Source: Bettongia penicillata ogilbyi (taxonomy: Eukaryota; Chordata; Mammalia; Diprotodontia; Potoroidae). Taken from it: a stretch of DNA of 64,000 bases. The notes under the pieces are model-generated. The model was not told where the DNA came from. It saw only the letters and a list, made by a program, of their open reading frames with translations, and searched no databases. A program made the translations under genes and the position numbers. Positions 5,925-52,830 of the stretch are shown here, piece after piece (within the stretch, counting starts at the first letter, position 1; every line of letters begins with the position of its first letter). The stretch is taken from positions 6,638,215-6,702,214 of the forward strand of contig JAJHZJ010000008.1 of assembly GCA_023548195.1 (NCBI GenBank), given 5' to 3'.

Positions 5925-6420
5925 TTCATTGTTAAAGATTGAGTTGCAAAGAAACGTTAAGTTATAGGAAGAAATAAGAAAACTGTGATAGTGGGGGACC
6001 TCAACTCAACCTTCTTAGACCTAGAGAAATAAAACCAAAGAAAAAGAGAAGTTAAGGATCTGAATAAAATTTTAGAAAAGTTAAATATAATAGCTTGTTG
6101 AAGAATATTGAATGGAAATAGAAGTATACCTTTTTTTCTCAGCTATACATGACACATTTACAAAAATTGACCATCTATTAGGGCATAAAAATCTCACAAA
6201 CATTCAGGAAAGCAGAAATATTAAATACACCTTTTACTGACCATAACCCAATTATAATTACATTCAATAAGGTGCCTTTGAAGAAAAGATTATAAATTAG
6301 TTGAAAACAAAATAATTTAAATGTGAAGATTGCATAGGTCAAAGAACAATCTACACACACACATGTACATATTACTATTTGGTCTATAACTCAAAGAGAT
6401 AAAAGAAAGTATGAACATAT
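5925..6420 (+). mobile_element. L1 ORF2 endonuclease-domain fragment
   Basis: At about 5986 the frame reads T-V-I-V-G-D-L-N-S, matching the G-D-[LF]-N motif of the L1 APE-type endonuclease that nicks target DNA. Downstream ttgaccatctattagggcat and aaccttttactgaccataac blocks fit the same domain (I-D-H-L-L-G-H). Stop codons and indels break the frame. The fragment precedes L1 C-terminal and 3'UTR sequence, so both may be one internally deleted L1. Confidence 0.65.
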
Positions 6421-7090
6421 ATGTAGCAATTCTTTTTGAGGTGGTAAAGAATTGGAAATTGAGGGGATACTCATCAATTATGGAATGATTGAACAAATTA
6501 TATTAAATGTGATAAAATACTATTGTGCTATATGAAATAATGATGGGGACAGCTAGGTAGTGTAGTGGACAGAGCACTGGCCCTGAACTGAGGATGAGCT
6601 GACACTTATTAGCTGTGTGAATCTGGGCTTGTCACTTAACTCCTACTGCCTCCAAAAAGAATGATGATGGAGATAGTTTCAGAAAAAAAAAACTAAGAAG
6701 ACTTGTATGAACAGATACAAAGTAAAGTGAGTAGAATCAGAAGAATTTGATGAGGATCTACGTAGTAGCAACAATGTTGTAAAGTGAATGAACTTTGAAA
6801 GCCTTAGTAACTCTGATTAACCCAATGATCAACTTAAATTCCAAAGAATTCATAATGCAACGTGTGTTTAAAAATGCTCTTCACTTTTAGATGGAAAAGT
6901 AATGGACAGAATTAAAATGAAAGCATGTATTCTTCTATTTCTTTTTTTTGGACATGACTAATGCAGGAATTTATCTTGCATGACTATAAATACAGGTAAT
7001 GGATTTTGTTTTTCTTGTCTTCTCAATAGATGGAGGAGGGAATGGAGAAAGAGGATTTGGAACTGAAAATAAAATAAAAGCAATTTAAAA
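6421..7090 (+). mobile_element. L1 ORF2 C-terminal end and 3'UTR, host of a nested SINE
   Basis: Blocks gaattggaaattgaggggat and tactattgtgctatatgaaa mark the ORF2 end. After the SINE, gacttgtatgaacagataca, aaagtgagtagaatcagaa, ttgtaaagtgaatgaacttt and a gaggatttggaactgaaaat end follow, closing with aaataaaagcaatttaaaaaaaag. The A-run is the element's end. Confidence 0.7.
6547..6659 (+). mobile_element. Truncated tRNA-headed SINE nested in L1
   Basis: Begins ggacagctaggtagtgtagt and runs to the gtcacttaactcctactgcc block, ending without a family tail. It is flanked by aataatgatgg (6536-6546) and aatgatgatgg (6660-6670), a target-site duplication with one mismatch, and clearly interrupts the L1 3' sequence. 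Confidence 0.85.
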
Positions 7091-7867
7091 AAAAGATTGA
7101 ATTGTTAAACAAAAATATGTGGACTGGAAAAATGTTTGCAATTATGTACAAGGACAAGGATGTCTTAGAAGGAATTTAATCCAGTCACAGACCTACTACA
7201 CATCCCTACATTGTTAGCACACATTGCTAACTTTGGTACTTGAAAATGGAAAATCAGATATGTGGGCCAAGCTGTTGTAGCATTATTTCCTTTTCCAGGG
7301 GTTTATGCTGAGACATCTACATGTCCCCTGGAAATACATGGCTCTGACCCGTTCTCCATGGTAGTTGAACTGGTACAGAACGGGTCCTGCCTCATTCAGT
7401 AAATTGTATACTCTCCATTTATGAATAACATCTTTGAGCTAAGACTTTTGTCAAATGCAAACAAGTTGACAAATTGTTCTGTCAGGATTCACTTTCAACC
7501 ACAGCTTGCCTTCTTTTTTTAAAAATGAGGATTGATCATTTACCTACTTTCTTATTTACAGGCTTAGAATTGTCTAAACCCAGGAAATGTTTTTGGCTTT
7601 AGCAAAAAGTATATAAAAACCCTCTATGGAACCTCAAACCTCACCTCAGTATTACCTAATGGTTATGTTGACTTACTAACCCTTTCAGACTATCCTGATT
7701 TTGTGACTTATTCTCTGTTCTGGTACATGTAGGTACATTAATCTTTGCCTTTCCTGCTTGGAAACCTGACCTGATGTTTGCTTTTATCTCTAGGGACTTC
7801 ACTGCCACTAGCTCTCACTATCCATGAAGCCTTTCTATCTTTTTTATTGTCTATGGTCCTAGGCATA
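7091..7867. other. Unassigned, probably unique DNA
   Basis: About 780 bases with no repeat family or coding exon recognised. It leads directly into a purine tract. Confidence 0.4.
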
Positions 7868-8208: not shown

Positions 8209-10369
8209 GATACCACAGGAAACCCTATATAAAAGCAAAGATTCATTCTCTAGTCAGAATTACTGGGATCAGAAAATAATTTTGAACAGTGAATTAACAT
8301 CTGAGTTTGAAGTTAGTTGGCCTCAGAGTGATACAATTTTCATCCCTAGTGAGTTACAAAGATTGTCTGCCAAGGGATAGGGCTTTTGTTCTCCATCAGT
8401 AGAGGAAGTACCCACATTGATGAAATCACAGATGCTTGAAGTTTTGAAATATTCACAATTTAAAGATGTGACAGACTTCTACTGCAAGTCTGTCAGGATG
8501 TGGCGACTTCTGACTGCTGATGTTAGTAGTTTGGCATCTTGTAGGACTGGGAAGGGGAAAGGGGGTAAGGTTAGTCCCTCCAGCAAAATGTCTGACTGAC
8601 TGACTGATGACCACTAGATCAGCAAGACCAACCTAGAAATTCTCCTGACTTTAGATGTGTCCTCCAAGCAGGATCAGAGTAGGTAGTGCCCAGATTAGGA
8701 CTATTGGCAGTAGCTGCTGCTTTTCTTCTTCTGGCTTTCCCAGATATTATTGGTGTAGGATTTTCTACCTGAAGATGGGAGGCTAAGTGGTAGACCAATC
8801 CTTTGCGTGTGTTACTCACTTCATGCTGAAATTACAAATGTTAACCTCCATTTTTGGAGACTCTTTCCCTAAGTCAAAGAAATGTTTATATGACATATGT
8901 ATGTTGAGTTGATAGTTTTCTTTGAAGCATCACCATTTGTAACCTCATGGTTTATATGCTAAATGTTCAACTTTCCCCCTCATTTCTTTGTAGCTTTTAT
9001 AAGAAGCTGAGTGAATTTTACTTCTTGCTTTCTCCTCTACCCTAAGCTCATCCTCCAAAGTCACTCTCCACATAATTACAGTAACTGAATTGAACAGATT
9101 GGCCACCCTGAGATAATAGCTGCACTCCTAGGTCACTGACAATATGTCATTCTTAGGCTAATTACAAAAGCAGGGAAAAAAAAGCCCAGTTACAGACCTC
9201 CTCTGCAGATAACAATAACTTGTTACTGAGGCCATTGAATGTCTTGAATGTGTACCAAGGTTAAGGTTCCTGAAAGACCAGTTATGATTTCAGAATAAAC
9301 TAATGAACCCCAAATTTAGCCAACTATGCCTTGGCCAACTAATGCTTCAAAAACTTCTAGGTCGATCAAAAAATGAGATTTGATTAGTCAGTAATATATG
9401 ATTTTACTCTAAAAAAGCAAGAACAATTCAGTCTCAGATTTCATTTCTGTCGAAGACTGCCTTTGACCTCTGCGATGATGTTTATACTTCTATTAACACG
9501 TTAAAAGTTGCAGAGGGTCATTTCCACAGGAGCGTGTCTCTCACCTGGAAGTATCTGAGGAGGCCTGGTAACCTGAGGAGGTTTTGCATCAACTCTATCC
9601 AGGCACCTGTGCACACTCTAACAAATCCTTTAAAAAGCCCTTTCAGAACATAATTCAGCTGTGTATTGAGTTTTCTTTATTGTATATTTTGAGTTTGGTA
9701 GTAATATTTACCATATAAACATATAGTTAGATAGAATTTACTGTTAAATTTTGGGAAATGGAAGACTGATTATTTTTTCAACTCTTAAAATTGGTCCTTT
9801 GAAGCAAGGAAAAGAGCCCTTACTTCATGATCTTAGTAACACTATGGCACTAATGAATAAAGAGACCAATTTAATAAAAATCCTCTACAATCACATGTAA
9901 TATTTAAAGTTAAGATGAGCAAGAATAAGGACTGAAAACAGCCAAATATATCACTGGAAATTATGATAAATTGTATATAAGAAGGGTGACAACAATGTTA
10001 TTCACCTTATTGAACTTAGGTGAGTTAATATTTTAAAGTAACAGCCATATTGTACAATTTTCTGAAAGCTTTCTGTAGAAGATTTCATAAGGGCAAACTT
10101 TGTATTTTTTCTTTAATACATAATTATTGATTTTGTTAATGTAGATATGTTCTCCTTTGAAACACATGACCACCCCTCCACTTTGAAGATGACCATCAAC
10201 AGTATGGCCAGCCTCCAGGAAGTGTGCCTCTCCACACTAACCTAGGCTGGCTCATCAATAAATTATCAAATATTTGTGTTACAGCTTTTGATTTTGGTGT
10301 GAGAAATACAGAGACAACAGTCTCTACCTTCAAAAAGCATATCTTGTATGTGTTGCATATATTAAAATT
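8209..10369. other. 2.2 kb of apparently unique sequence
   Basis: No interspersed repeat recognised, unusual for this window. A tgactgactgactga run lies near 8590. The 9040-9670 part has balanced composition and a low density of simple sequence, as conserved noncoding elements often do, but conservation cannot be seen from one sequence. No frame beyond 66 codons. Confidence 0.4.
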
Positions 10370-10890
10370 GAACTGTTTACATTCTTACATGGAAAGATAA
10401 CATTTATAACCCATGAGATCATTCTCAGTATTAGGGAATTTGGAGGGTGAGTTGAATATGAAGGGATGATATCTAAAAAATAAAATTACGGGGTGAGAAG
10501 AATGTATTGGGAAGAGAAAGGGAAAGGGAGAATAAGGTAAATTATCTCACCTAAAAGAGGGAAGAAAAAACTTTTACAATGGAGGGGAAGAATGGGGAGG
10601 TAAGAGGGAATGAATGAACCTTACCCCTATCGAATCTGGCTTAAGGAAGGGAATAATATACACATTCAATTGCATATGAAAATCTATCCTACCCTACAGG
10701 AAAGTAGAGGGGAAGGACATAAGTGGGGGATGGTGGAAGGGAGGACAAATAGGGGGAGGAGGTAATCAGAAGCAAATATTTTTGAAGAGGACAGGGTCAA
10801 AGGAGAGAAGAGAATAAAGATATATAATAAATAAAACAACAAATCAAGATATATGATAGAGATGTGCAATAAGTCAGAGATGTTGAAATG
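10370..10890 (+). mobile_element. L1/HAL1-type fragment: region downstream of ORF1
   Basis: Parallels 26330-26880 in the better preserved element: gaactgtttacattcttaca tggaaaga, a gggagaataaggtaaatta block, cttttacaatggagggga, aaccttacccctat, a cacattcaattgcatatgaa block, ctatcctaccctacaggaaa and a gaggacagggtcaaagg block. Order and spacing match, so this is a diverged copy. No ORF1 is attached. Confidence 0.7.
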
Positions 10891-17129: not shown

Positions 17130-18052
17130 TTATTGTTGCAATAGATAGATTGAGGACAATTGAATTCTAGAAGGAATTCTCTTTCTTATTCTTCTGTTTC
17201 TTTGAAGTCCCAACATTAAGATAGAGAATTTTTTACATTTTGCATTTTTATGTTGACTCTTTCCATAGAAGAGTACTTTTATTTTCCTTCTCGGCAGGGA
17301 CAAACATTTCCCATTGTGATACATTGTGAGTGCATTCTCTATGTTTGCAGTGAAGTTAATGACTGAGATGTCTCAACTTTGCTGGCAAATAAAGATTTTC
17401 ACCCCCTTTCACTATACACATAATTAACTCTGGGGCTTGGGGATTTGGTTAATTGGAGCCTTGACAGCCTCATGGTGTTAGGGAGAGGTGTTTTCACACG
17501 CACAAAAATCATTCGGAGGCATCATTTTGTCATGAGACTGATGTATTAAGCCCTTGGCATATTCAGATCACTCTAGTCTCAAACACTGGCCATTTTTTTG
17601 TGTTTTATGGGAAGCACTTCACTTATGACTTTCAAGGGTAGGAAATGTAACTATTACTTTCTGAAATCCTAGTTTCAGTCTTGCAAGTGAGATTACATCA
17701 AGTATTTCAGCCATTCAGTCAATTTGGGGAGCTCCACTTTTGGACCCGATAGCACTCTTATTTTTCTGGTCTCCCCAAAATCGAAGACCTCCCCCATCCT
17801 ACATAACACTCTTTCCAGAATTTGGCAACAGTTAGGAGTTGGAGTAAATGAGTTGTTTTTTAGTTTGATGCTCATTCTGATTGGGGATGGCTTTTAGAAA
17901 TGTGACAATACCCTCTAAGTGTGGGATTGATGGTGAGAGAAGCAAGAGGTCAGAGGCAAGAGACAGAAAAACATGCAGAGAGATTGAAAATTATTTTCTT
18001 TTCTTGAGTACTTTACACACTGCCAACTATTCCAAGATCTAGCAACACTGGA
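17130..18052. other. Apparently unique DNA, candidate conserved noncoding stretch
   Basis: No repeat family seen in about 920 bases. 17380-17560 contains paired TAATTA/GGTTAATT homeodomain-type cores (ataattaact, ggttaattgg). Conservation is untested. It ends at the (TTC)n tract. Confidence 0.35.
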
Positions 18053-18399
18053 TTCTTCTTCTTCTTCTCCTTCTTCTTCTTCTCCTTCTTCTCCTTCTTC
18101 TTCTTCTCCTTCTCCTTCTTCTCCTCCTTCTCCTCCTCCTCCTTCTTCTTCTTCTTCTTCTTCTTCTTCTTCTTCTTCTTCTTCTTCTTCTTCTTCTCCT
18201 TCTCCTTCTTCTCCTTCTTCTCCTTCTTCTTCTCCTTCTTCTCCTTCTTCTTCTTCTCCTCCTTCTCCTCCTCCTCCTCCTTCTTCTTCTTCTTCTTCTT
18301 CTTCTTCTTCTTCTTCTTCTTCTTCTTCTTCTTCTTCTTCTTCTTCTTCTTCTTCTTCTTCTTCTTCTTCTTCTTCTTCTCCTTCTTCTTCTTCTTCTC
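18053..18399. repeat. (TTC)n/(TCC)n polypyrimidine tract, 347 bp
   Basis: Near-pure TTC repeats with CTCC interruptions arranged in two similar halves: ctcctcctcc clusters near 18131 and 18259, each followed by a pure (TTC)n run. On the minus strand this is (GAA)n, the sequence class able to form triplex or sticky DNA. Minus-strand frames of 136 and 140 codons (Lys/Glu, Arg) are artefacts. Confidence 0.97.
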
Positions 18400-18722
18400 A
18401 CATAACATTCCATCTCCCAACACTGACCGTTTTCATTGTCCTGGACTCTCTCCCTCCTCATCTCTGCCTCCTACTTTCCCCATTTTCTTTTTAAGTCTCA
18501 GCCAAAATTCCACCTTCTTCAAGGAGTCTTTCTTGATCCATCATAATACTGCTGGCTTCCTCTTGCTGATCAGCTACAATCTGTCCTGTATATACTTTGC
18601 ACATAGTCTTTTGCCTGTTGTCTGCCCCATTAGACTATAAGATCCTTGTGAGCAGGGTCTACTTTTAACCTTTCTTTGTATGGCACATAGCTGGTGCTTA
18701 AAAAATACTAATTGACTGATTG
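18400..18722 (+). mobile_element. L2-type LINE 3' end
   Basis: Reads cattccatctcccaacactg, ctccctcctcatctctgcct, agtctcagccaaaattccac, cttcaaggagtctttcttga, ctgtatatactttgcacata, ccccattagactataagatc, gagcagggtctac and ggcacatagctggtgcttaa, the L2 3' order seen antisense at 38.3 kb. It starts directly after the (TTC)n tract. Confidence 0.75.
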
Positions 18723-24398: not shown

Positions 24399-24430
24399 TT
24401 AGGATCCTTTTCCTTTAAAAAAATTTACAT

Positions 24431-25166
24431 GGGGAGCCAAGATGGCGGAGTAGAAAGACTCATGTATGCTAGCTCCGAACCCACAGCCCATATACTTCCT
24501 GCAAGAAGAACTCCCCACAAATTCTGGATCACTGCAAGGCATGCAGAAACACAGTGGAAAAGATTTCTGTTCCAGAGAGCCCTGGAGAGCCCTCCTCAGG
24601 GGTCCGTTGCACCCCAGAAAGCAGAGCCCAGCCTGTGCTGCCCTGGCCATGGCCCCAGAGGAGCAGATCTGAGCAGGCTTCAGGGACGGAATCTCCGGTG
24701 TCTGGGAAGGTCCCTCTGCCCACAAACGTTACAGGTCAGTGAGAGAGACGTCTGAGCTGGCTGAGAGGGGAGCGGGGTGTTTCTGTGACTCGGGCCCCCT
24801 TGGAAGGCAGTGGCGGAGGGAGCGGCAGAGGCAGTGGCAGAAGTAGTGGCGGTGGCAGTGGAGGCAGCCCGGGACTCCCCGAGCAAGCAGAAGCTCCATT
24901 ACTGAAGGTCTCTGCATAAACCTCCTGAGGGAACTGAGCCTGGGAGACAGCCCTGCCCCCCCTTCCCCATTACTGAAGGTCTCTGCATAAAGCCCCTGAG
25001 GGAACTGAGCCTGGGAGGCAGCCCTGCCCCCACCTGAGCACCAGAACTTAAGCTCACATTGAATAGCAGCCACGCCTGCTGTGGAAAGCCCATTTGAATT
25101 GCAGACCCCAAGCACTAGCTGGGCAGATCTAGGCGGGGGTGGACAGGAATCGCAGAAGTCAAGTAA
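24431..25166 (+). promoter_or_regulatory. HAL1/L1 5'UTR and internal promoter region with YY1-type site
   Basis: The element opens with ccaagatggcgg at 24437-24448; AAGATGGC is the YY1-type core that positions initiation in L1 5'UTRs of other mammals. The region is GC- and CpG-richer than its surroundings, contains an imperfect GGC/AGC stretch (24806-24868) and two tandem 71-bp units. Promoter function is inferred from position and family. Frames of 60-136 codons here on both strands have no recognisable domain. Confidence 0.6.
24896..25037 (+). repeat. Two tandem 71-bp units in the HAL1/L1 5'UTR
   Basis: Unit one starts ccattactgaaggtctctgc at 24896 and unit two repeats it at 24967. The units stay aligned through gaactgagcctgggag and agccctgccccc, with few differences (acctcc against agcccc). 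The arrangement recalls the tandem 5' monomers of rodent L1 promoters. Here there are only two. Confidence 0.85.
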
Positions 25167-26279
25167 ATGACTGGGAAAATTCCCAGAAAAGGGAAGAAAA
25201 ATAAGACTATAGAAAGCTACTTTGAAGGGGTACAGATGCTCCCGCCTTTCAATCCTGATGACGAGGAACTTTTCTTACCATCAGGGAAAGACGTGGAGGT
25301 CAGGGCCTCTGTATCCCAGAAATCCCAGGTGGATGTCCAATGGGCTCAGGCCATGGAAGGGCTCAAAAAGGATTTTGAAAATCAAGTTAGACAGGTGGAG
25401 GAAAAACTGGGAAGAGAAATGAGAGAGATGCAAAAAAAGCATGAAAAACGGGTCAATACCTTGCTAAAGGAGACCCCAAAAAATGTTGAAGAAAATAAAA
25501 CCTTGAAAAATAGGCTCACTCAATTGGCAAAAGAGGTTCAAAAAGCCAATGAGGAGAAGAATGCTTTCAAAAGCAGAATTAGCCAAAGGGAAAAAGAAGT
25601 TCAAAAGCTCACGGAAGATAATAGTTCTCTTAAAATTAGAATGGAACAGATGGAGTCTAATGACTTTCTGAGAAACCAAGAAATCACAAAACAAAACCAA
25701 AAGAATGAAAAAATGGAAAAGAATGTGAAATATCTCATTGGAAAAACAACTGACCTGGAAAATAGATCCAGGAGAGACAATTTAAAAATTATGGGACTAC
25801 CTGAAAGTCATGATCAAAAAAAGAGCCTAGACATCATCTTTCATGAAATTATCGAAGAAAACTGCCCTGATATTCTACAGTCAGAGGGCAAAATAAGTAT
25901 TGAAGGAATCCATCGATCACCGCCTGAAAGAGATCCAAAAAGAGAAACTCCTAGGAACATTGTGGCCAAATTCCAGAGTTCCCAGATCTAGGAGAAAATA
26001 TTGCAAGCAGCTAGAAAGAAACAATTTCAGTACTGTGGAAATACAGTCAGGATAACACAAGATCTAGCAGCTTCTACATTAAGGGATCGAAGGGTGTGGA
26101 ATAGAATATTCCAGAAGTCAAAGGAACTAGGACTCAAACCAAGAATCACCTACCCAGCAAAACTGAGTATAATACTTCAGGGGAAAATATGGTCTTTCAA
26201 TGAAACAGAGGACTTTCAAGCATTCTTGATGAAAAGACCAGAACTGAAAAGAAAATTTGACTTTCAAACACAAGAATGA
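25167..26279 (+). pseudogene. L1-type ORF1 (RNA-binding chaperone), one premature stop
   Basis: One frame runs from ATG 25167 to the stop at 26279 and is broken only by TAG at 25989-25991 (codon 275); 274 codons precede it and about 95 follow. ORF1p is a trimeric nucleic-acid chaperone that coats LINE RNA. Residues 1-50 are a basic, then acidic N-terminus; about 55-195 is a Lys/Glu-rich coiled coil; the RRM starts with the family signature D-L-E-N-R-S-R-R-D-N-L at 196-206 and includes I-H-R-S-P-P and P-R-N-I-V-A-K-F near 248-269. After the stop come R-I-T-Q-D-L-A-A-S-T-L and Y-P-A-K-L-S, hallmarks of the C-terminal domain. About 370 residues is slightly longer than primate ORF1p (338). No ORF2 follows. 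Confidence 0.9.
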
Positions 26280-27326
26280 GAAGAAGCATGAAAAAGTAAA
26301 CAGCAAAGAGAAGTCATAAGGGACTTACCAAAAGTGAACTGTTTACATTCCTACATGGAAAGACAATATTTCTAACTCTTAAAACTTTTCAATATCTGGG
26401 TAGTCGGTGGGACTACACACACACATACACACTCACGCACACACACATACACACGTGTGTGCACACACATACACACATGGACGCACACACAGAGACAGAG
26501 AGTACAGAGTGAATTGAACAGGATGGGACCATATCTTAAAATAAATTAAGGTAAATGGTGAGAGAGAAATATAGTAGGAGGAGAGAGGGTGAAATGGAAT
26601 GGGATAAATTATATCTCGTTCAAGAGGGAAGCAGGAGACTTTTTATTGGAGGGAAAAAGAGGAGAGCTGAGAAAAAACATGAAGGTTACCCTCATCACAT
26701 TCAACTAAAGGAAGGAGTAAAATGCACACTCATTTTGGTATGAAAACCTATCTTACAATTCAGGAAAGTGGGGGAGAAGGAGATAAGCAAGGAGGGGGAT
26801 GATGGTAGGGAGGGCAATGGGAGGAGGGAGCAATTTGAAGTCAACATTCGGGGAGGGACAGGATCAAAAGAAAAAATAGAAACAATGGGAGTCAGGATAG
26901 GATGGGGGGAAATACAGTTATTCTTACACAACATGACTATTATCGAAGTCATTTGCAAAACTGCACAGATATGGCCTATATAGAATTGCCTGCCTTCCCA
27001 AAGGGAATAGGTGGGGAGGGAGGGATGGGGAGAATTTGGAACTCAAAGTTTTAGGAACAACTGTTTAGTATTGTTGTTGCTACTAGGAAATAAGAAATAC
27101 AGTTAATGGGGAATAGAAAGTCATCTGGCCCTACAGGACAAAAGAGAAGATGGGGACAAGAGAAGGGAGGGATGATAGAAGAGAGGGCAGATTGGTGATA
27201 GGGAAAATTAGATTGCTTGGTGTATTGGGGTGGGGGAAGGGGATAAAAGGGGAGAAAATTTGGAACCCAAAATTTTTTGAAAATGAATGTAAAAAGTTAA
27301 ATAAATGCATTTTTATTAAAAAAAAA
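26280..27326 (+). mobile_element. 3' region of the HAL1-like element
   Basis: Begins with a tgaactgtttacattcctac block also found after ORF1 in the antisense L1 at 48.4 kb and at 10.37 kb, so it derives from the L1 region that follows ORF1. It includes a (CA)n run, several Gly/Arg-coding purine stretches and ends gagaaaatttggaacccaaa, aaatgaatgtaaaaagttaa, ataaatgcatttttatt plus A-tail. An AATAAA-like aaataaatgc precedes the tail. Confidence 0.75.
26416..26490. repeat. Imperfect (CA)n microsatellite within the element
   Basis: cacacacacatacacac repeated with gcac and cgtgtgtg interruptions. Confidence 0.88.
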
Positions 27327-28009
27327 TGTATATGGATCAGTAACACTATATTCTTTCAAAACCAGTAACAGCCCTTCTAAGGTGAAAGAAAACTTAGTGC
27401 TTAGAAAACAAGGTCACCTGTTAGACCTAGAATCCTTTAGTATGCCAGAAAGGAATTAAGGGGAGAAATAAACTATGGTGTTGACAGTAACTCTGCTGTA
27501 TGGTACCTGATCGACAGCATCTCTGTAATCAATACTCATTCTCATTAGCACAAAGTCTAATCTTGCTTTGTGTACGATTTTCCGTTCAATGCTTGGTTAT
27601 TGTCCGTTGGCTGAGAGAGATCAGGCAAGTGATATTAGGTGGAATGACCTCATTCCTCTGAAGTACAGGTTTGAGCCAGAAATTGAGGTTATCTGCAAAG
27701 TGAAAATGTCTTGAGGGGAGAAAGTGCAGAGATTTCTGTAGTCAATGATGGTGTTATACAGAGCAAAGTTCTAAAACATGAATTGCCTCAAAATGCATAT
27801 TGACATCATTTTTAAGGGTAATTAACAGGTGGTTTATTTCCAAATTGGAGCAGTTAGCTATAATGCGTATTTGTAATGAAGAGAAGAAGGCTTTTTGGCA
27901 GTTTGATTTGTTGAACATTATATCAAATGAGTTTAATTTTTATTGAAATTTAATGCTTAATTAGGTCCCCATAAAACATATACTCTGAAATGACTCAAGA
28001 ATTATTAAA
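27327..28009. other. Apparently unique DNA, best candidate for conserved noncoding sequence
   Basis: About 680 bases free of recognisable repeats. 27780-27990 is AT-rich but complex, with several homeodomain-type cores (ggtaattaac, cttaattagg). No coding exon. Function is not shown by the sequence. Confidence 0.35.
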
Positions 28010-33989: not shown

Positions 33990-34530
33990 TGGGCACGTAT
34001 TATCTGTGTGACCTTGAGAAAGTCACCGAATCTCTCACCATTCCCAGCAAACTCCATAGAGTCATAAGCCTTGGGTTCAAATCCTGCCTCTGACCCATGC
34101 CGTTTCTGTGACCCTGGGAAAATCACTTAACTTCTCAGTATTCTTGGCAATGTTCTAAGACAGAGGCGCAGAAAAGGTGCTGACCTGAATTGGCAGAGGA
34201 ACTTTCCTCACCTGAGAATTTCCCTTTTGTTGTTGAGTCATTTTTCAGTTATATCTGGCTCTTTGTGACCCCATTTGACCTTTCCTTGGCAGAGATACCA
34301 CAGTGGCTTGCCATGCCCTTCTCGAGCTCATTTGACAATTGAGGAATTGAGGCAAACAGGGTTAAATGACTTGACCAAGATCACAAAACTACTAAGTATC
34401 TGAGACCAGATTTGAACTTATGATGAGTCTTCCTGGTTCCAAGTCCAGTGCTTGATCCACCCCATCACCTAGCTGCCACTGGGAATTTCCAATACCAATG
34501 AAATCAGAGGTCCGGTCTCTATGCCCTCTG
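33990..34530 (+). mobile_element. tRNA-headed SINE, tail type D, split by a nested SINE
   Basis: A partial body at 33990-34045 is followed by a second body (gggttcaaatcctgcctctg, gtgaccctgggaaaatcact) and the type D tail tcttggcaatgttctaagac, gtgctgacctgaattggcag, cctcacctgagaatttcc. The tail continues after the nested SINE with gggaatttccaataccaatg and aaatcagaggtccggtctct. Gain of the second body by partial duplication is possible. Confidence 0.75.
34224..34482 (-). mobile_element. tRNA-headed SINE, tail type A, antisense, nested with 8-bp TSD
   Basis: Left end ttttgttgttgagtcatttt, then ctttgtgaccccatttgacc, cttggcagagataccacagt, aggcaaacagggttaaatga, and the head complement catcacctagctgcc. 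gaatttcc at 34216-34223 and 34483-34490 flanks it and lies in the type D SINE it interrupts. Confidence 0.88.
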
Positions 34531-46586: not shown

Positions 46587-49500
46587 TTTTTTTTTTAAAT
46601 TTTGCATTCTGGATTCTCTCCTCCATCCCACCCACCTGCCATCCACTAAGAAGGTAAAAAATATATCAATTAAATATGAAACCACATAAAACAATTTTTA
46701 AATTAATCATATCACAAAAAACCAGCAAAAAAGTAAGAAAATTATGCTTCAATTTGCACTCAGAATTTATCAGTTCTCTCTTTGGCGGTAGATAGCATTT
46801 TTTCATCATGAGTCTCGGGCTTGGATCACTGTATTGATTGGCGTGGCCAAGTCTTTCACAGTTGATCATTATTACAACATTGCTATTACTTTGCACAATA
46901 ATCTCCTGGTTTTTTCACTTCACTTTGCATCAGTTCATATAGGTCTTGCTGTCTTTTTTCTAAAAGCACCCCCCTTTGTCACATCTTATAGCATGATAAT
47001 ATTCCATCAATGTTATATGTTCAGTCATTCTCTGATTGATGAGCATCTCAATTTCCAGTGTTTTACCACAACTCAACAAACTGCTATAAATATTTTTGTA
47101 CATATAGGTTTTTTTCTTTTTCTTTGATCTCTTTGGGGTATAGACCTAATAGTGATATTGCTGGATAAAAGGGTAAGTGCAGTTTTGTAGCCCTTTAGGT
47201 ATAGTTTCAGCTTGCTCTCCAGAATGGTTGGACCAGTTCCCTATTCCACCAACAGTTCATTAATGTACCTATTTTGCTTTATCCCCTCCAGCATTTGTCA
47301 TTTCTGATAGGCATAAGGATGTTACCTCAGAGTTGTTTTAATTTGCATTCCTGTAATCAATAGTGAGTCAGAGCATTTCTTCATATAACAATAGACAGCT
47401 TTGATTTTTTTCTTCTGAAAGCTGCCTGTTCATACTTTTTGATCATTTATCAATTGAGGAGTAGCTCTTATTTTTTAATAGCTTTTATTTTTATCAGTTC
47501 CCTACCTATTTGAGAAATGAGGCCTTTATCAGAGAAATTTGATATAATTTTTTTAGAAATATAACTTTATTGTTTATGGTGCCTTTTAGCAAAACATAGT
47601 TTCGCTGAATATCTCTCTCAGTTATGTCTAATTTTGTTTTGGCTTTGTATGGCTTCATGATTGCTATCCTTGCCCTCTTCACTTCAACTGAAGCATAATA
47701 AATTCCGCTCCAGTCCTTCATTTCCACTCTGTCGGTGTCTCTCTGTCTCAACTCTCTGTCTCAAGTGTGTCTCTTGTATAGAACATATTGTTAGATTCTG
47801 ATTTCCAAATCATTCTGCTTTTTTTCCTGGGTTAGTTCATCCCATTCACATTCACATTTATGATCATTAACTATACCTTTCCATTTATCCCATTTTCTTC
47901 TGTTTCTTCTTCTATCTCTCTTTTTTTTATTTTGTCTCTTCTCAAAAATCTGTCTTTCTTTCATGTACTGCCTGCACCAATCTGCCCTCCCTTTTATCAT
48001 ACTGACCACATATCTCTTTTTCCCTTTTCCTCTTATCTCCCTATATGGTAAGATAAATTTCTATATCCAACTGTATATGTATATATATATATATATGCAT
48101 ATCTATACATATATATATTCTTCCCTCTCTGAACCAATTCTGATGAGAGTCTCAAGCATTGCTCACCACTGCCCATTTGCCTTCCACTATAAAAGCTCTT
48201 CTTTGCTTATCTCTTTTATATGAAAAAAATTTCCTCATTCTACCTCTCCCTTCCCCCTCCTCCCAGTGCATTCTCTTTCTCACCCCTACATTCTTTTTTG
48301 GAGATCATTTCAACTAACATCTATACCCTCTGTCTATGCAGACTCTTTCTAACTGTCCTAATAATGATAAATTTCTAAGGGGTTACATGTATCGTCTTCC
48401 CGCATAGGAATGTAAACAATTTAACTTTATTGCATCCCATCTGATTACTCTTTCATATTCAGTTTCATTACTCTTTCATACTTTTTGTGATTCTCTTGAC
48501 TCATCTATTTGCATGTCAATTTGTCTCTTCAGCTCTAGTCTTTCATTAGGAATGTTTGGAAGTTCTCCATTTCATTAAATATCTATTCCCCTCCCCCCCA
48601 AGGTTATACATAGTTTTTTTGGACAAATTATTCTGGTTGTAAGCCTAGCTCCTTTGCCTTCTAGAATATCATATTACAAGCCCTCCAATTCATTGATGTG
48701 GAAGCTGCTAAATCTCATGTGATCTTGACTGTGGATCCACACTACTCTAATTGCTTCTTTCTGGCTGCTGGCAACATTTTCTCCTTGACCTGTGAGTTAT
48801 GGAATTTGGCTATAATATCCCTGGGATTTAGGGATCTCTTTCAGGAGGTGATCAGTGGATTCTTTCCACTTCTATTTTACCCTCTAGATAGAAGATATCA
48901 GGGCAATTTTTATTTATAGTTTATTGAAATATAATTTCTAGGTTCTTCCTTTGATTAGGACTTTCAGGTAGTCCAATAATTTTTAAATTATATCTCCTGA
49001 ATGTATTTTCCAGGTCATATTTTTTTTCCAATTAGAAATTGGAGAACAATCAATTTTCTTTGATTTTTCATTCTTTTGACTTCATTTTTTATTTATAAAA
49101 ATCTCATAGAGTCATTAGCTTCCACTTCTCTAATTCTAATTTTTATGGAATTATTTTCCTCAGTGAGCTTTTGCACCTCTTTTCCTATTTGGTCAATTCT
49201 TCTTTTTAAAGGGTTCTTTTCTTTAGTGAATTTTGTACCTCCTTTTCTATTTGACTCATTCTAATTTTAAAAGAGTTCTTTTCTATAGTGAACTCTAGGC
49301 CAATTCTATTTTTAAGGTGATTTTTTTCTTCAGTTTTTTTGTGTCTCTTTTATGGGACTATTAATTTTCTTTTCAAAATTTTCACATCTCTCATTCCCCA
49401 CCCTCCACCCCCCATCTTTCCTCTCACCCCTCCTATCTCTTCTTTTAACTCTTTTAGAAATTCTTGTAGGCCTTGGGTCCAATTATCTTTTTTATGAGGC

Positions 49501-50040
49501 TTTGCTTGTAGATATTTTCAATGTTGTCTTCTAAGTTTATGTCTTTGTCTTCTCTACTATCATAATAACTTTTTTATAGTCAAGTTATTTTTGTGGTTGC
49601 TGTTGCTTGCTCATTTCCCCAACCTATTTCTTGACTTACTTTTTTATGTAAAGTTGGGGTGGTGAGAAGGCACTATACCAAGTTTCAGACTTTTCTGTGC
49701 TGTTGTTTTCAGAGCTAGTTTTAAGGGTCTTCAAGTTTTTGGAACTTCCAAGGTGGTGTTATCCTGGGAGAGAGATCACTGCTCTCCTGTTTTGTACTCT
49801 GATATCTTTACCCAAGGAGGGTCCCTGCTCCCCTGCAGCCACAAGTACTAGTGCTCATCTTGGCTCTGGAACTATGCCCAAGTGCCCTCCTTTCCTGCAG
49901 ACATAAGTGTTAGGACCTCTCTTGGCCTTGGAACTGTGACCAGGGCCCTTGTTCCCTTGTGATCAACATCCCTCTCTACTCTGGTACTGTGACACAGAAC
50001 TAATTAGGGACAATAGAGTTGCCAGTCAAGGCTAACAAAG
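46587..50040 (-). mobile_element. Antisense L1 with 5'UTR, ORF1 and internally deleted ORF2
   Basis: Minus strand, 5' to 3': 5'UTR about 50040-49560 (ccttgaaccccagg-like GC-rich blocks); ORF1 about 49560-48480, recognised by alignment to the element at 25 kb (the complement of gccttctagaatatcatatt pairs with its ttccagaagtc-aaaggaacta block); post-ORF1 DNA with a tttacattcctatgcgggaa equivalent; an endonuclease piece about 47800-47560; then the ORF2 C-terminus about 47520-46700 (L-I-K-A-S-F-L start, C-terminal Cys/Trp region) and 3'UTR with a poly-T complement tail at 46587-46596. The whole reverse-transcriptase core, roughly 2.5 kb, is missing. Stops in every frame. Confidence 0.75.
48078..48117. 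repeat. (TA)n microsatellite inside the antisense L1
   Basis: tatatatatatatatatatg and following TA-rich run. Confidence 0.85.
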
Positions 50041-52094: not shown

Positions 52095-52830
52095 TGTGAA
52101 CTGGAATACTAGTGCTGTGTTGGTAGAGATGTGAGTCAGTTCAGCCATTTTGGAAAACAATTTGAAATTATGACCAGAAAGTTACTGAACTGTGCAAACT
52201 TTTTCAACCTGACTATGCCACTATTAGGCCTACACCCCCAAAGGAAATCAAAGAGAGAGGAAAAGGTTCTATATGTACAAAAACATTTGCAGCATGGGAG
52301 CTTTGCTGTTGTCATGATAGCCAAAAAATGAAAATTAAGTACCTATCCTCCTTTTGGGGAATAGCTAAACAAATTATAATAATTGGATGCACTGAATATT
52401 TTAGTGCCATAAGAAATAATGAAATGGGTAATTTCAAAGGAAAGTGAAACTTTTGTGATTGATGCATGGTAAGGGTAGCACAAATGGAACAATTTATACC
52501 ATGATAACGTTATAGAGAAAAACAGCTTTCAGAGACATTAATGCATTGCTAAATAATGATAAACCTTGAGTCCAAAAGAATGAAGATGAAAGAGCATATG
52601 ATTCACCTCCTCACAGAGTGTGATGAACTTAATATTCAGAAAGAATGTACATTTTTGCATATGACTAATTTTGAAGTTTGTTTTTACCAGACCATGTATT
52701 GGGGACTTCATTCATTTTCCCTTCATTTAGATATACAGTAATTTTGCTCCTAGAAAGAAGCATAGTAAGAGAAATAGATTAATTTTTCAAAATATTTTTG
52801 TTACTTGAAAAAAGATAAACTTTTGAAAAT
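52095..52830 (+). mobile_element. L1 ORF2 C-terminus and 3'UTR
   Basis: tttggaaaacaatttgaaat, tatgccactattaggcctac (P-L-L-G-L-H-P in frame), atgtacaaaaacatttgcag, ttttggggaatagctaaac and ttagtgccataagaaataat are ORF2-end blocks. tgataacgttatagagaaaa, cagagacattaatgcattg and cacctcctcacagagtgtga are 3'UTR blocks, closing near aaataaataaatgtat. Frames are disrupted. Confidence 0.75.

What the first reader, a model, noticed from the sequence alone, without database searches (positions are those of the whole stretch)
24431..27326. Near-intact ORF1-only (half-L1) element with both termini
Seen: an L1-type 5' start, GC-rich 5'UTR, an ORF1 frame of 371 codons with a single TAG, and a 3' region with A-tail, but no endonuclease or reverse transcriptase at all. 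Known: HAL1 half-L1 elements have this layout and depend on ORF2 protein in trans. Inferred: this copy is younger than the other LINE remains here and may belong to a family active late in the marsupial lineage.
Basis: partly seen in the sequence, partly recalled or inferred. Interest (0 to 1): 0.75.

Follow-up and report, generated by a model that had tools for sequence, protein, structure and literature searches.

The report
ORF1-only half-L1 jumping-gene family
This is one damaged copy of a mobile DNA element that kept only half of an L1 jumping gene; the same half-element is repeated tens of thousands of times in this marsupial genome, so it spread as a unit, presumably by borrowing the enzyme of complete L1s.

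Summary
The element (24433-27326) is one copy of a replicating family: 20 of 20 fetched close relatives run from ORF1 past the ORF2-loss junction with no ORF2, and the junction signature occurs 25,560 times in the host genome (reversed-pattern control 0).

Corrections: the junction lies near 26917-26923, not 26280-26340; 26280-~26920 is the ORF1-ORF2 spacer of ordinary L1s. The family start codon (25179) is lost in this copy; its ATG at 25167 and its TAG are private mutations.

The lineage is old: a much more diverged copy has the same junction, and its ORF1p groups with tammar wallaby proteins, apart from the young L1 of the same genome (three copies 99.1-99.7% identical). Typical copies date to roughly 5-33 Myr by marsupial mutation rates. 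Outside CpG sites, shared ORF1 variants show purifying selection (p = 0.013) while private ones look neutral, so ORF1 probably mattered for spread.

Mobilisation by L1 ORF2p in trans is inferred, not shown. HAL1s are a published class, so this is a new member of a known kind.

The parts
24417..24432 (.). 5' flanking repeat (likely target-site duplication), preceded by TTT
   Evidence: 14 of 16 bases match 27320-27335; p = 0.064 against 420 flank swaps
24433..25178 (+). GC-rich 5'UTR with the L1-type 5' end; presumed promoter (not tested)
   Evidence: same 5' end in 19 of 20 relatives; GC 58.6%
24896..25031 (+). 65-bp tandem duplication (24896-24960 and 24967-25031, 95% alike) inside the 5'UTR
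   Evidence: self-match; counted as two copies in the window and 5 of 20 relatives at the cut-off used
25179..26279 (+). ORF1 frame as in the family (366 codons plus stop); here the start codon is ATT and there is an inner TAG at 25989-25991
   Evidence: Pfam Transposase_22 and Tnp_22_dsRBD
26280..26922 (+). former ORF1-ORF2 spacer of the parent L1
   Evidence: aligns to the spacer of old L1s that still carry ORF2 sequence (window 49637-47632 minus, L017:2251-2830)
26917..26923 (+). ORF2-loss junction: spacer joined to the L1 3'UTR
   Evidence: spanned by 40 of 40 scored matches; signature counted 25,560 times
26923..27112 (+). L1 3' end, first unit
   Evidence: aligns to L017:3702-3890, which directly follows ORF2 sequence there
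27100..27215 (+). second spacer-like stretch
   Evidence: against an old L1 spacer 0 of 200 shuffles reach the score; against the window's own spacer 5 of 200
27225..27326 (+). second L1 3' end and A-run
   Evidence: against 26940-27112 0 of 200 shuffles reach the score; against the L017 3' end 9 of 200
27320..27335 (.). 3' flanking repeat, overlapping the A-run

Best explanation
The element is a copy of a HAL1-type (half-L1) non-autonomous retrotransposon family. An ancestral L1 lost ORF2 by joining the ORF1-ORF2 spacer to the 3'UTR. The resulting unit (5'UTR, ORF1, composite 3'UTR ending in A) then multiplied by L1-type target-primed reverse transcription. It most likely made its own ORF1p, which bound its RNA in cis, and borrowed endonuclease and reverse transcriptase (ORF2p) from coexisting L1s. 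Shown here: structure, one shared junction, copy number, flanking repeats at most fetched copies, selection on ORF1 (moderate statistics), and L1s with open ORF2 in the same genome. Inferred: the promoter, cis action of ORF1p and trans use of ORF2p. The window copy cannot make a full ORF1p.
For: 20 of 20 fetched relatives cross the junction without ORF2, 18 of 20 to the common 3' end; 40 of 40 junction-query matches continuous; 25,560 junction signatures, control 0; 31,451 ORF1-start signatures, control 0, about the same number after correction for detection in the 20 copies, 19 of 20 and 15 of 20; flanking repeats at p<0.05 in 12 of 20 relatives; L017 and the window's old L1 show the order ORF1-spacer-ORF2 and ORF2-3' end; six of 20 relatives have ORF1 open to the end; non-CpG shared ORF1 variants 19:16 changing:silent against private 170:54, p = 0.013; about 60 of 150 scored reverse-transcriptase matches lie in a 1298-codon open frame, counted by eye.
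Against: No transcript, protein or retrotransposition was observed. The flanking repeat of the window copy is only p = 0.064 and 8 of 20 relatives show none at p<0.05. At CpG sites, left out of the test, shared variants were 12:5 and private 8:8, the opposite direction, with few counts. Pairs of intact copies gave dN/dS 0.32, 0.70 and 0.67, mostly neutral decay. The 20 fetched copies were chosen by ORF1 similarity. The young L1 found has different UTRs, so the L1 that supplied ORF2p is not identified.
Confidence: 0.88

Rival explanations
1. A private internal deletion of one L1 copy, with no family behind it.
For: The window copy is broken (start codon lost, TAG), and internally deleted L1s do exist here (L017, window 46.6-49.6 kb).
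Against: 20 of 20 fetched relatives and 40 of 40 junction matches share the same junction; 25,560 junction signatures.
Confidence: 0.01
2. The family is a half-L1, but ORF1 is a passenger: sources did not need it and ORF1p also came from L1s in trans.
For: 14 of 20 fetched copies have a stop or frameshift; recurrent CGA to TGA stops at codon 250 (4 of 20) and 308 (3 of 20) could have been tolerated in sources; CpG-site counts do not show selection.
Against: Private changes are already neutral (3.15 against 3.09 expected), so stops can be post-insertion decay; shared non-CpG changes are 1.19 (p = 0.013); half-L1 against L1 ORF1 dN/dS 0.17, though saturated and including the L1 branch.
Confidence: 0.1
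3. A domesticated L1 ORF1 gene, like L1TD1.
For: ORF1-only coding content; a marsupial L1 ORF1 relative bears the name LINE-1 type transposase domain-containing protein 1 (P0015).
Against: Broken frame, tens of thousands of copies, own 5'UTR and A-tail; L1TD1 is reported absent from marsupials (PMC4161310, passages).
Confidence: 0.005

Closest known systems
HAL1 (half-L1) elements, Bao and Jurka 2010 (paper not held; known here through passages of papers that cite it)
   Same: ORF1 only, A-tail, target-site duplications, presumed dependence on L1 ORF2p; HAL1s are said to have arisen independently several times in mammals (PMC5753468, PMC5322556, passages).
   Different: Copy number here (at least 25,560 junction signatures) is above the near 2,100 copies given for human (PMC5322556, passage; the two counts are made differently). 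Junction, composite 3'UTR and lineage were worked out for this family only; not compared with library sequences.
Named marsupial-coded HAL1 families HAL1-3A_ME and HAL1-2a_MD
   Same: Names occur in print as LINE/L1 repeats (passages); that the suffixes mean Macropus eugenii and Monodelphis domestica is recalled.
Tammar wallaby ORF1p-like proteins P0001-P0004
   Same: Same ORF1p clade (100/100); P0001 86% identical over 100%. The P0004 N-terminus resembles a frame of this 5'UTR (by eye).
   Different: Their genomic context, with or without ORF2, is unknown here.
The young L1 of the same genome (L041-L043)
   Same: L1 layout, related 5' end and spacer, ORF1 77% identical over the alignable part.
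   Different: Has ORF2; 5'UTR and most of the 3'UTR not matched by BLAST; its ORF1p groups with a different wallaby protein, P0013 (100/100).

Membership tests
HAL1 (half-L1) | L1-type ORF1 present | tested here: met
   Pfam Transposase_22 and Tnp_22_dsRBD; solved L1 ORF1p chains matched at E 1.6e-29 by a relative, L021
HAL1 (half-L1) | ORF2 (endonuclease and reverse transcriptase) absent | tested here: met
   absent here and between ORF1 and 3' end in 20 of 20 fetched relatives
HAL1 (half-L1) | Derived from an L1 | tested here: met
   spacer and 3' end align to old L1s around ORF2; ORF1 tree
HAL1 (half-L1) | Replicated as a unit in many copies | tested here: met
HAL1 (half-L1) | A-tail and target-site duplications | tested here: met
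   family level: 12 of 20 relatives at p<0.05; window copy alone p = 0.064
HAL1 (half-L1) | Mobilised by L1 ORF2p in trans | not testable with these tools
   only the presence of L1s with open ORF2 frames in the genome was shown
A named Repbase/Dfam HAL1 family of wallaby or opossum | Sequence identity with the library consensus | not testable with these tools
   no repeat library held; names seen in papers only
Autonomous L1 | ORF2 with endonuclease and reverse transcriptase | tested here: not met
   absent in this copy and in 20 of 20 fetched relatives

The most novel reading that the evidence does not exclude
The half-L1 is a long-lived, separately evolving ORF1-only lineage: its own ORF1p is kept by selection and acts in cis, while ORF2p is taken from other, successive L1 lineages; it outlasted changes of the supplying L1, split from the present L1 lineage before this host parted from the tammar wallaby, and reached copy numbers above those reported for human HAL1.
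Probability: 0.5. Interest if true: 0.55.

Novelty: new member of a known kind. Interest (0 to 1): 0.42.

Why it matters
HAL1s are natural experiments on what L1 ORF1p does. A lineage that lost ORF2 long ago, has tens of thousands of copies and still shows signs of selection on ORF1 in its sources supports the view that ORF1p is needed by its own RNA even when the enzyme comes from elsewhere. With L1s carrying open ORF2 in the same genome, cis against trans use of the two L1 proteins becomes testable, as does how a half-element persists while the supplying L1 changes.

Tried and rejected
Subfamilies marked by the 5'UTR 65-bp duplication: no shared variant was clearly tied to it (best p 0.053 among 63 variants). 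A tree of 21 copies plus one old copy resolved almost nothing among the young copies (0 of 19 inner branches starred). Two of four tests of the composite 3'UTR were weak (5 and 9 of 200 shuffles). Pfam PF08333 is not in the library. Not answered, so nothing concluded: a count of spacer-ORF2 borders and a search for the youngest copies starting from L009. Not held: Bao and Jurka 2010 and Gentles 2007.

What was left out of counts: of 81 proteins, 25 went into the tree with three from the own genome, 56 did not. The 20 fetched loci are 20 of 39 other ORF1 matches. CpG sites were left out of the selection test (told in the report). Copy L010, L025 and L026 gave no match in the junction comparison at its cut-off. 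Papers: passages seen of PMC5753468, PMC3183009, PMC4161310, PMC5322556, PMC3403934, PMC7518892, PMC3229502, PMC3478180, PMC13247528, PMC4859970 and PMC8535693; abstract and outline of PMC2666806; otherwise search listings. No claim is made that this family is absent from print.

Full report
OBSERVATION. The element lies at 24433-27326 on the + strand. It has the L1-type 5' end (19 of 20 fetched relatives reach the same end, L013 is cut at 25114), a 58.6% GC 5'UTR in a 37-38% GC surrounding, an ORF1 frame with the two L1 ORF1p Pfam domains, about 1 kb of non-coding sequence and an A-run. A 16-bp repeat flanks it (14 of 16 matches, after TTT, as expected at an L1 endonuclease site; the site rule is recalled). 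Against swapped flanks this alone is p = 0.064; 12 of 20 relatives have flanking repeats at p<0.05 and 8 do not.

IT IS A FAMILY. The host genome (G000, 3.39 Gb, unnamed) was searched with ORF1: 40 scored matches of 6,124 candidates, namely the window copy and 39 others at 95-96%. Of the 39, 20 were fetched with flanks. All 20 run from ORF1 past the ORF2-loss junction with no ORF2; 18 reach 27305-27327, two end at 27061 (L024) and 27135 (L026). A 321-bp query across the junction gave 40 scored matches of 5,771 candidates, all covering at least bases 4-321 at 94-100%. The junction 23-mer with at most one mismatch occurs 12,745 + 12,815 = 25,560 times, and a 25-mer at the ORF1 start 15,506 + 15,945 = 31,451 times, both with 0 in the reversed control. 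In the 20 fetched copies these patterns detect 15 of 20 and 19 of 20, so corrected numbers are near 34,000 and 33,000: no large excess of such ORF1s without the junction, and many copies seem to reach the ORF1 start. The correction rests on near copies and is rough. Among exact places printed for contigs C1-C4, 18 of 57 ORF1-start places have an exact junction 1.68-1.76 kb downstream on the same strand; four further pairs are 2.2, 3.7, 4.5 and 7.9 kb apart.

WHERE ORF2 WAS LOST. An old L1 in the window (49637 down to about 46600, minus strand) has ORF1, then this same region, then the start of ORF2, which also matches the ORF2 start of the young L1 at 69%. In L017 an old L1 has ORF1, the spacer (aligning up to about 26920), the 3' part of ORF2, and then the sequence that aligns from 26917 onward. 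Queried with that L1's 3' end, 17 of 20 fetched half-L1 copies match, 16 from exactly base 183 and L023, which has a small deletion there, from 188; the window copy from 182. L010, L025 and L026 gave no match at the cut-off used. An L1-like copy at L018:356-620 crosses that base without a break. So the unit is 5'UTR + ORF1 + inter-ORF spacer + 3'UTR, joined at 26917-26923. Beyond 27100 the 3'UTR looks composite: 27100-27215 resembles an old L1 spacer (0 of 200 shuffles) and 27229-27289 resembles 27010-27068 (0 of 200); two other comparisons are weaker (5 and 9 of 200). A template jump between two element RNAs is a likely cause (inference).

STATE OF THIS COPY. The family start codon is ATG at 25179 in 20 of 20 relatives and ATT here. 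The ATG at 25167 and the TAG at 25989 are private. In one search four of 20 relatives (L012, L019, L021, L023) had no stop or frameshift; L022 and L028 were marked one base short only because an alignment gap split their stop codon, so six of 20 are open to the end. First stops at codons 250 (4 of 20) and 308 (3 of 20) are CGA to TGA, at CpG.

AGE. The young copies form a star: end branches have a median of 2.9%; private substitutions outside the 5'UTR have a median of 1.2%, range 0.7-2.4%, this copy 1.6%. Yearly rates of 0.87e-9 (koala), 1.27e-9 (Tasmanian devil) and 2.35e-9 (Virginia opossum), from passages of PMC13247528, give roughly 5-33 Myr for typical copies. The host's own rate is unknown and the copies were chosen by ORF1 similarity; whether much younger copies exist did not complete. 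A much older copy, L022:326-2479, has the same junction and composite 3'UTR and groups with the young ones (100/99). L018 shows a young copy inserted in an old one.

RELATION TO L1. Of 150 scored reverse-transcriptase matches (40,005 candidates), about 60, counted by eye, lie in a 1298-codon open frame. Three fetched L1s (L041-L043) are 99.1-99.7% identical over 6.9 kb; two of the three have both frames open. Their ORF1 is 77% identical to the half-L1 over the alignable part. BLAST matches their UTRs not at all; forced alignment shows a related 5' end, spacer and last 115 bases. In a protein tree of 28, half-L1 ORF1p groups with wallaby proteins P0001-P0004 (100/100) and the young L1 with wallaby P0013 (100/100). 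So the half-L1 is a separate lineage, and the two lineages split before this host and the tammar wallaby did. The genomic context of the wallaby proteins is unknown, so that they come from half-L1s is not shown.

SELECTION. Outside CpG sites, private ORF1 changes are 170 amino-acid-changing or stop to 54 silent (3.15; 3.09 expected from the same mutation spectrum), so inserted copies decay neutrally. Changes shared by three or more of 21 copies are 19 to 16 (1.19; Fisher p = 0.013); by two or more 39 to 27 (p = 0.012). At CpG sites, left out of the test, private changes are 8 to 8 and those shared by three or more 12 to 5, the opposite direction; recurrent mutation may explain this. Half-L1 against L1 ORF1 gives dN/dS 0.17, with dS saturated and the L1 branch included; between intact half-L1 copies 0.32, 0.70 and 0.67. 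Together this is moderate support for a working ORF1p in the sources.

MECHANISM. Most likely a pol II transcript from the 5'UTR is translated to ORF1p, which binds its own RNA; ORF2p from a coexisting L1 nicks a T-rich/A-rich site and reverse-transcribes from the A-tail. That pol II transcripts need ORF1p in addition to ORF2p was reported from an assay (PMC2666806, abstract), which would explain why the half-element keeps ORF1. A review says HAL1 insertions keep the internal promoter that longer L1 insertions often lose (PMC8535693, passage), in line with the many copies that reach the ORF1 start. Promoter activity, cis action and trans supply are not shown here.

WHAT IS KNOWN. HAL1s are described as ORF1-only L1 derivatives that arose several times, with poly(A) tails and target-site duplications and nearly 2,100 copies in human (PMC5753468, PMC5322556, passages); young HAL1 families are listed for guinea pig and marmoset (PMC3183009, passages). 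The names HAL1-3A_ME and HAL1-2a_MD occur in print; that the suffixes mean wallaby and opossum is recalled. The present family may already be in such a library. The kind is known; the abundance, junction, composite 3'UTR, separate lineage and selection test are what this work adds.

Noticed in passing
46600-49637 (-): Old L1 with ORF1, spacer and ORF2 start joined to ORF2 3' sequence, i.e. with most of ORF2 deleted.
   Followed up: partly
10364-10882 (+): Fragment of the L1 spacer (matches 26330-26881 at about 76%) with no ORF1 before it and neither ORF2 nor an L1 3' end after it.
   Followed up: no
6369-6535, 6952-7091, 52139-52294: Further short L1 ORF2-3' or 3'-end fragments, 69-71% to old L1 pieces.
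   Followed up: no
17915-18494: Long purine/pyrimidine simple-sequence tract that gives open frames in several readings.
   Followed up: no
L018:5582-9500: A young half-L1 inserted inside an older half-L1 that already has the same junction.
   Followed up: partly
P0014: A protein labelled as from a Bacteroidales genome bin (2,533-base contig) is 52% identical to this L1 ORF1p: probably host DNA contaminating a bacterial bin.
   Followed up: no
P0001, P0015: L1-type ORF1 proteins are annotated as genes in marsupials (20 member sequences behind the wallaby P0001; a Tasmanian devil one named LINE-1 type transposase domain-containing protein 1), although L1TD1 is reported absent from marsupials (PMC4161310, passages).
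   Followed up: no
half-L1 copies, 25167-27310: 63 variants are shared by four or more of 21 copies, yet the tree of the copies is unresolved, as if sources recombined or templates switched.
   Followed up: no
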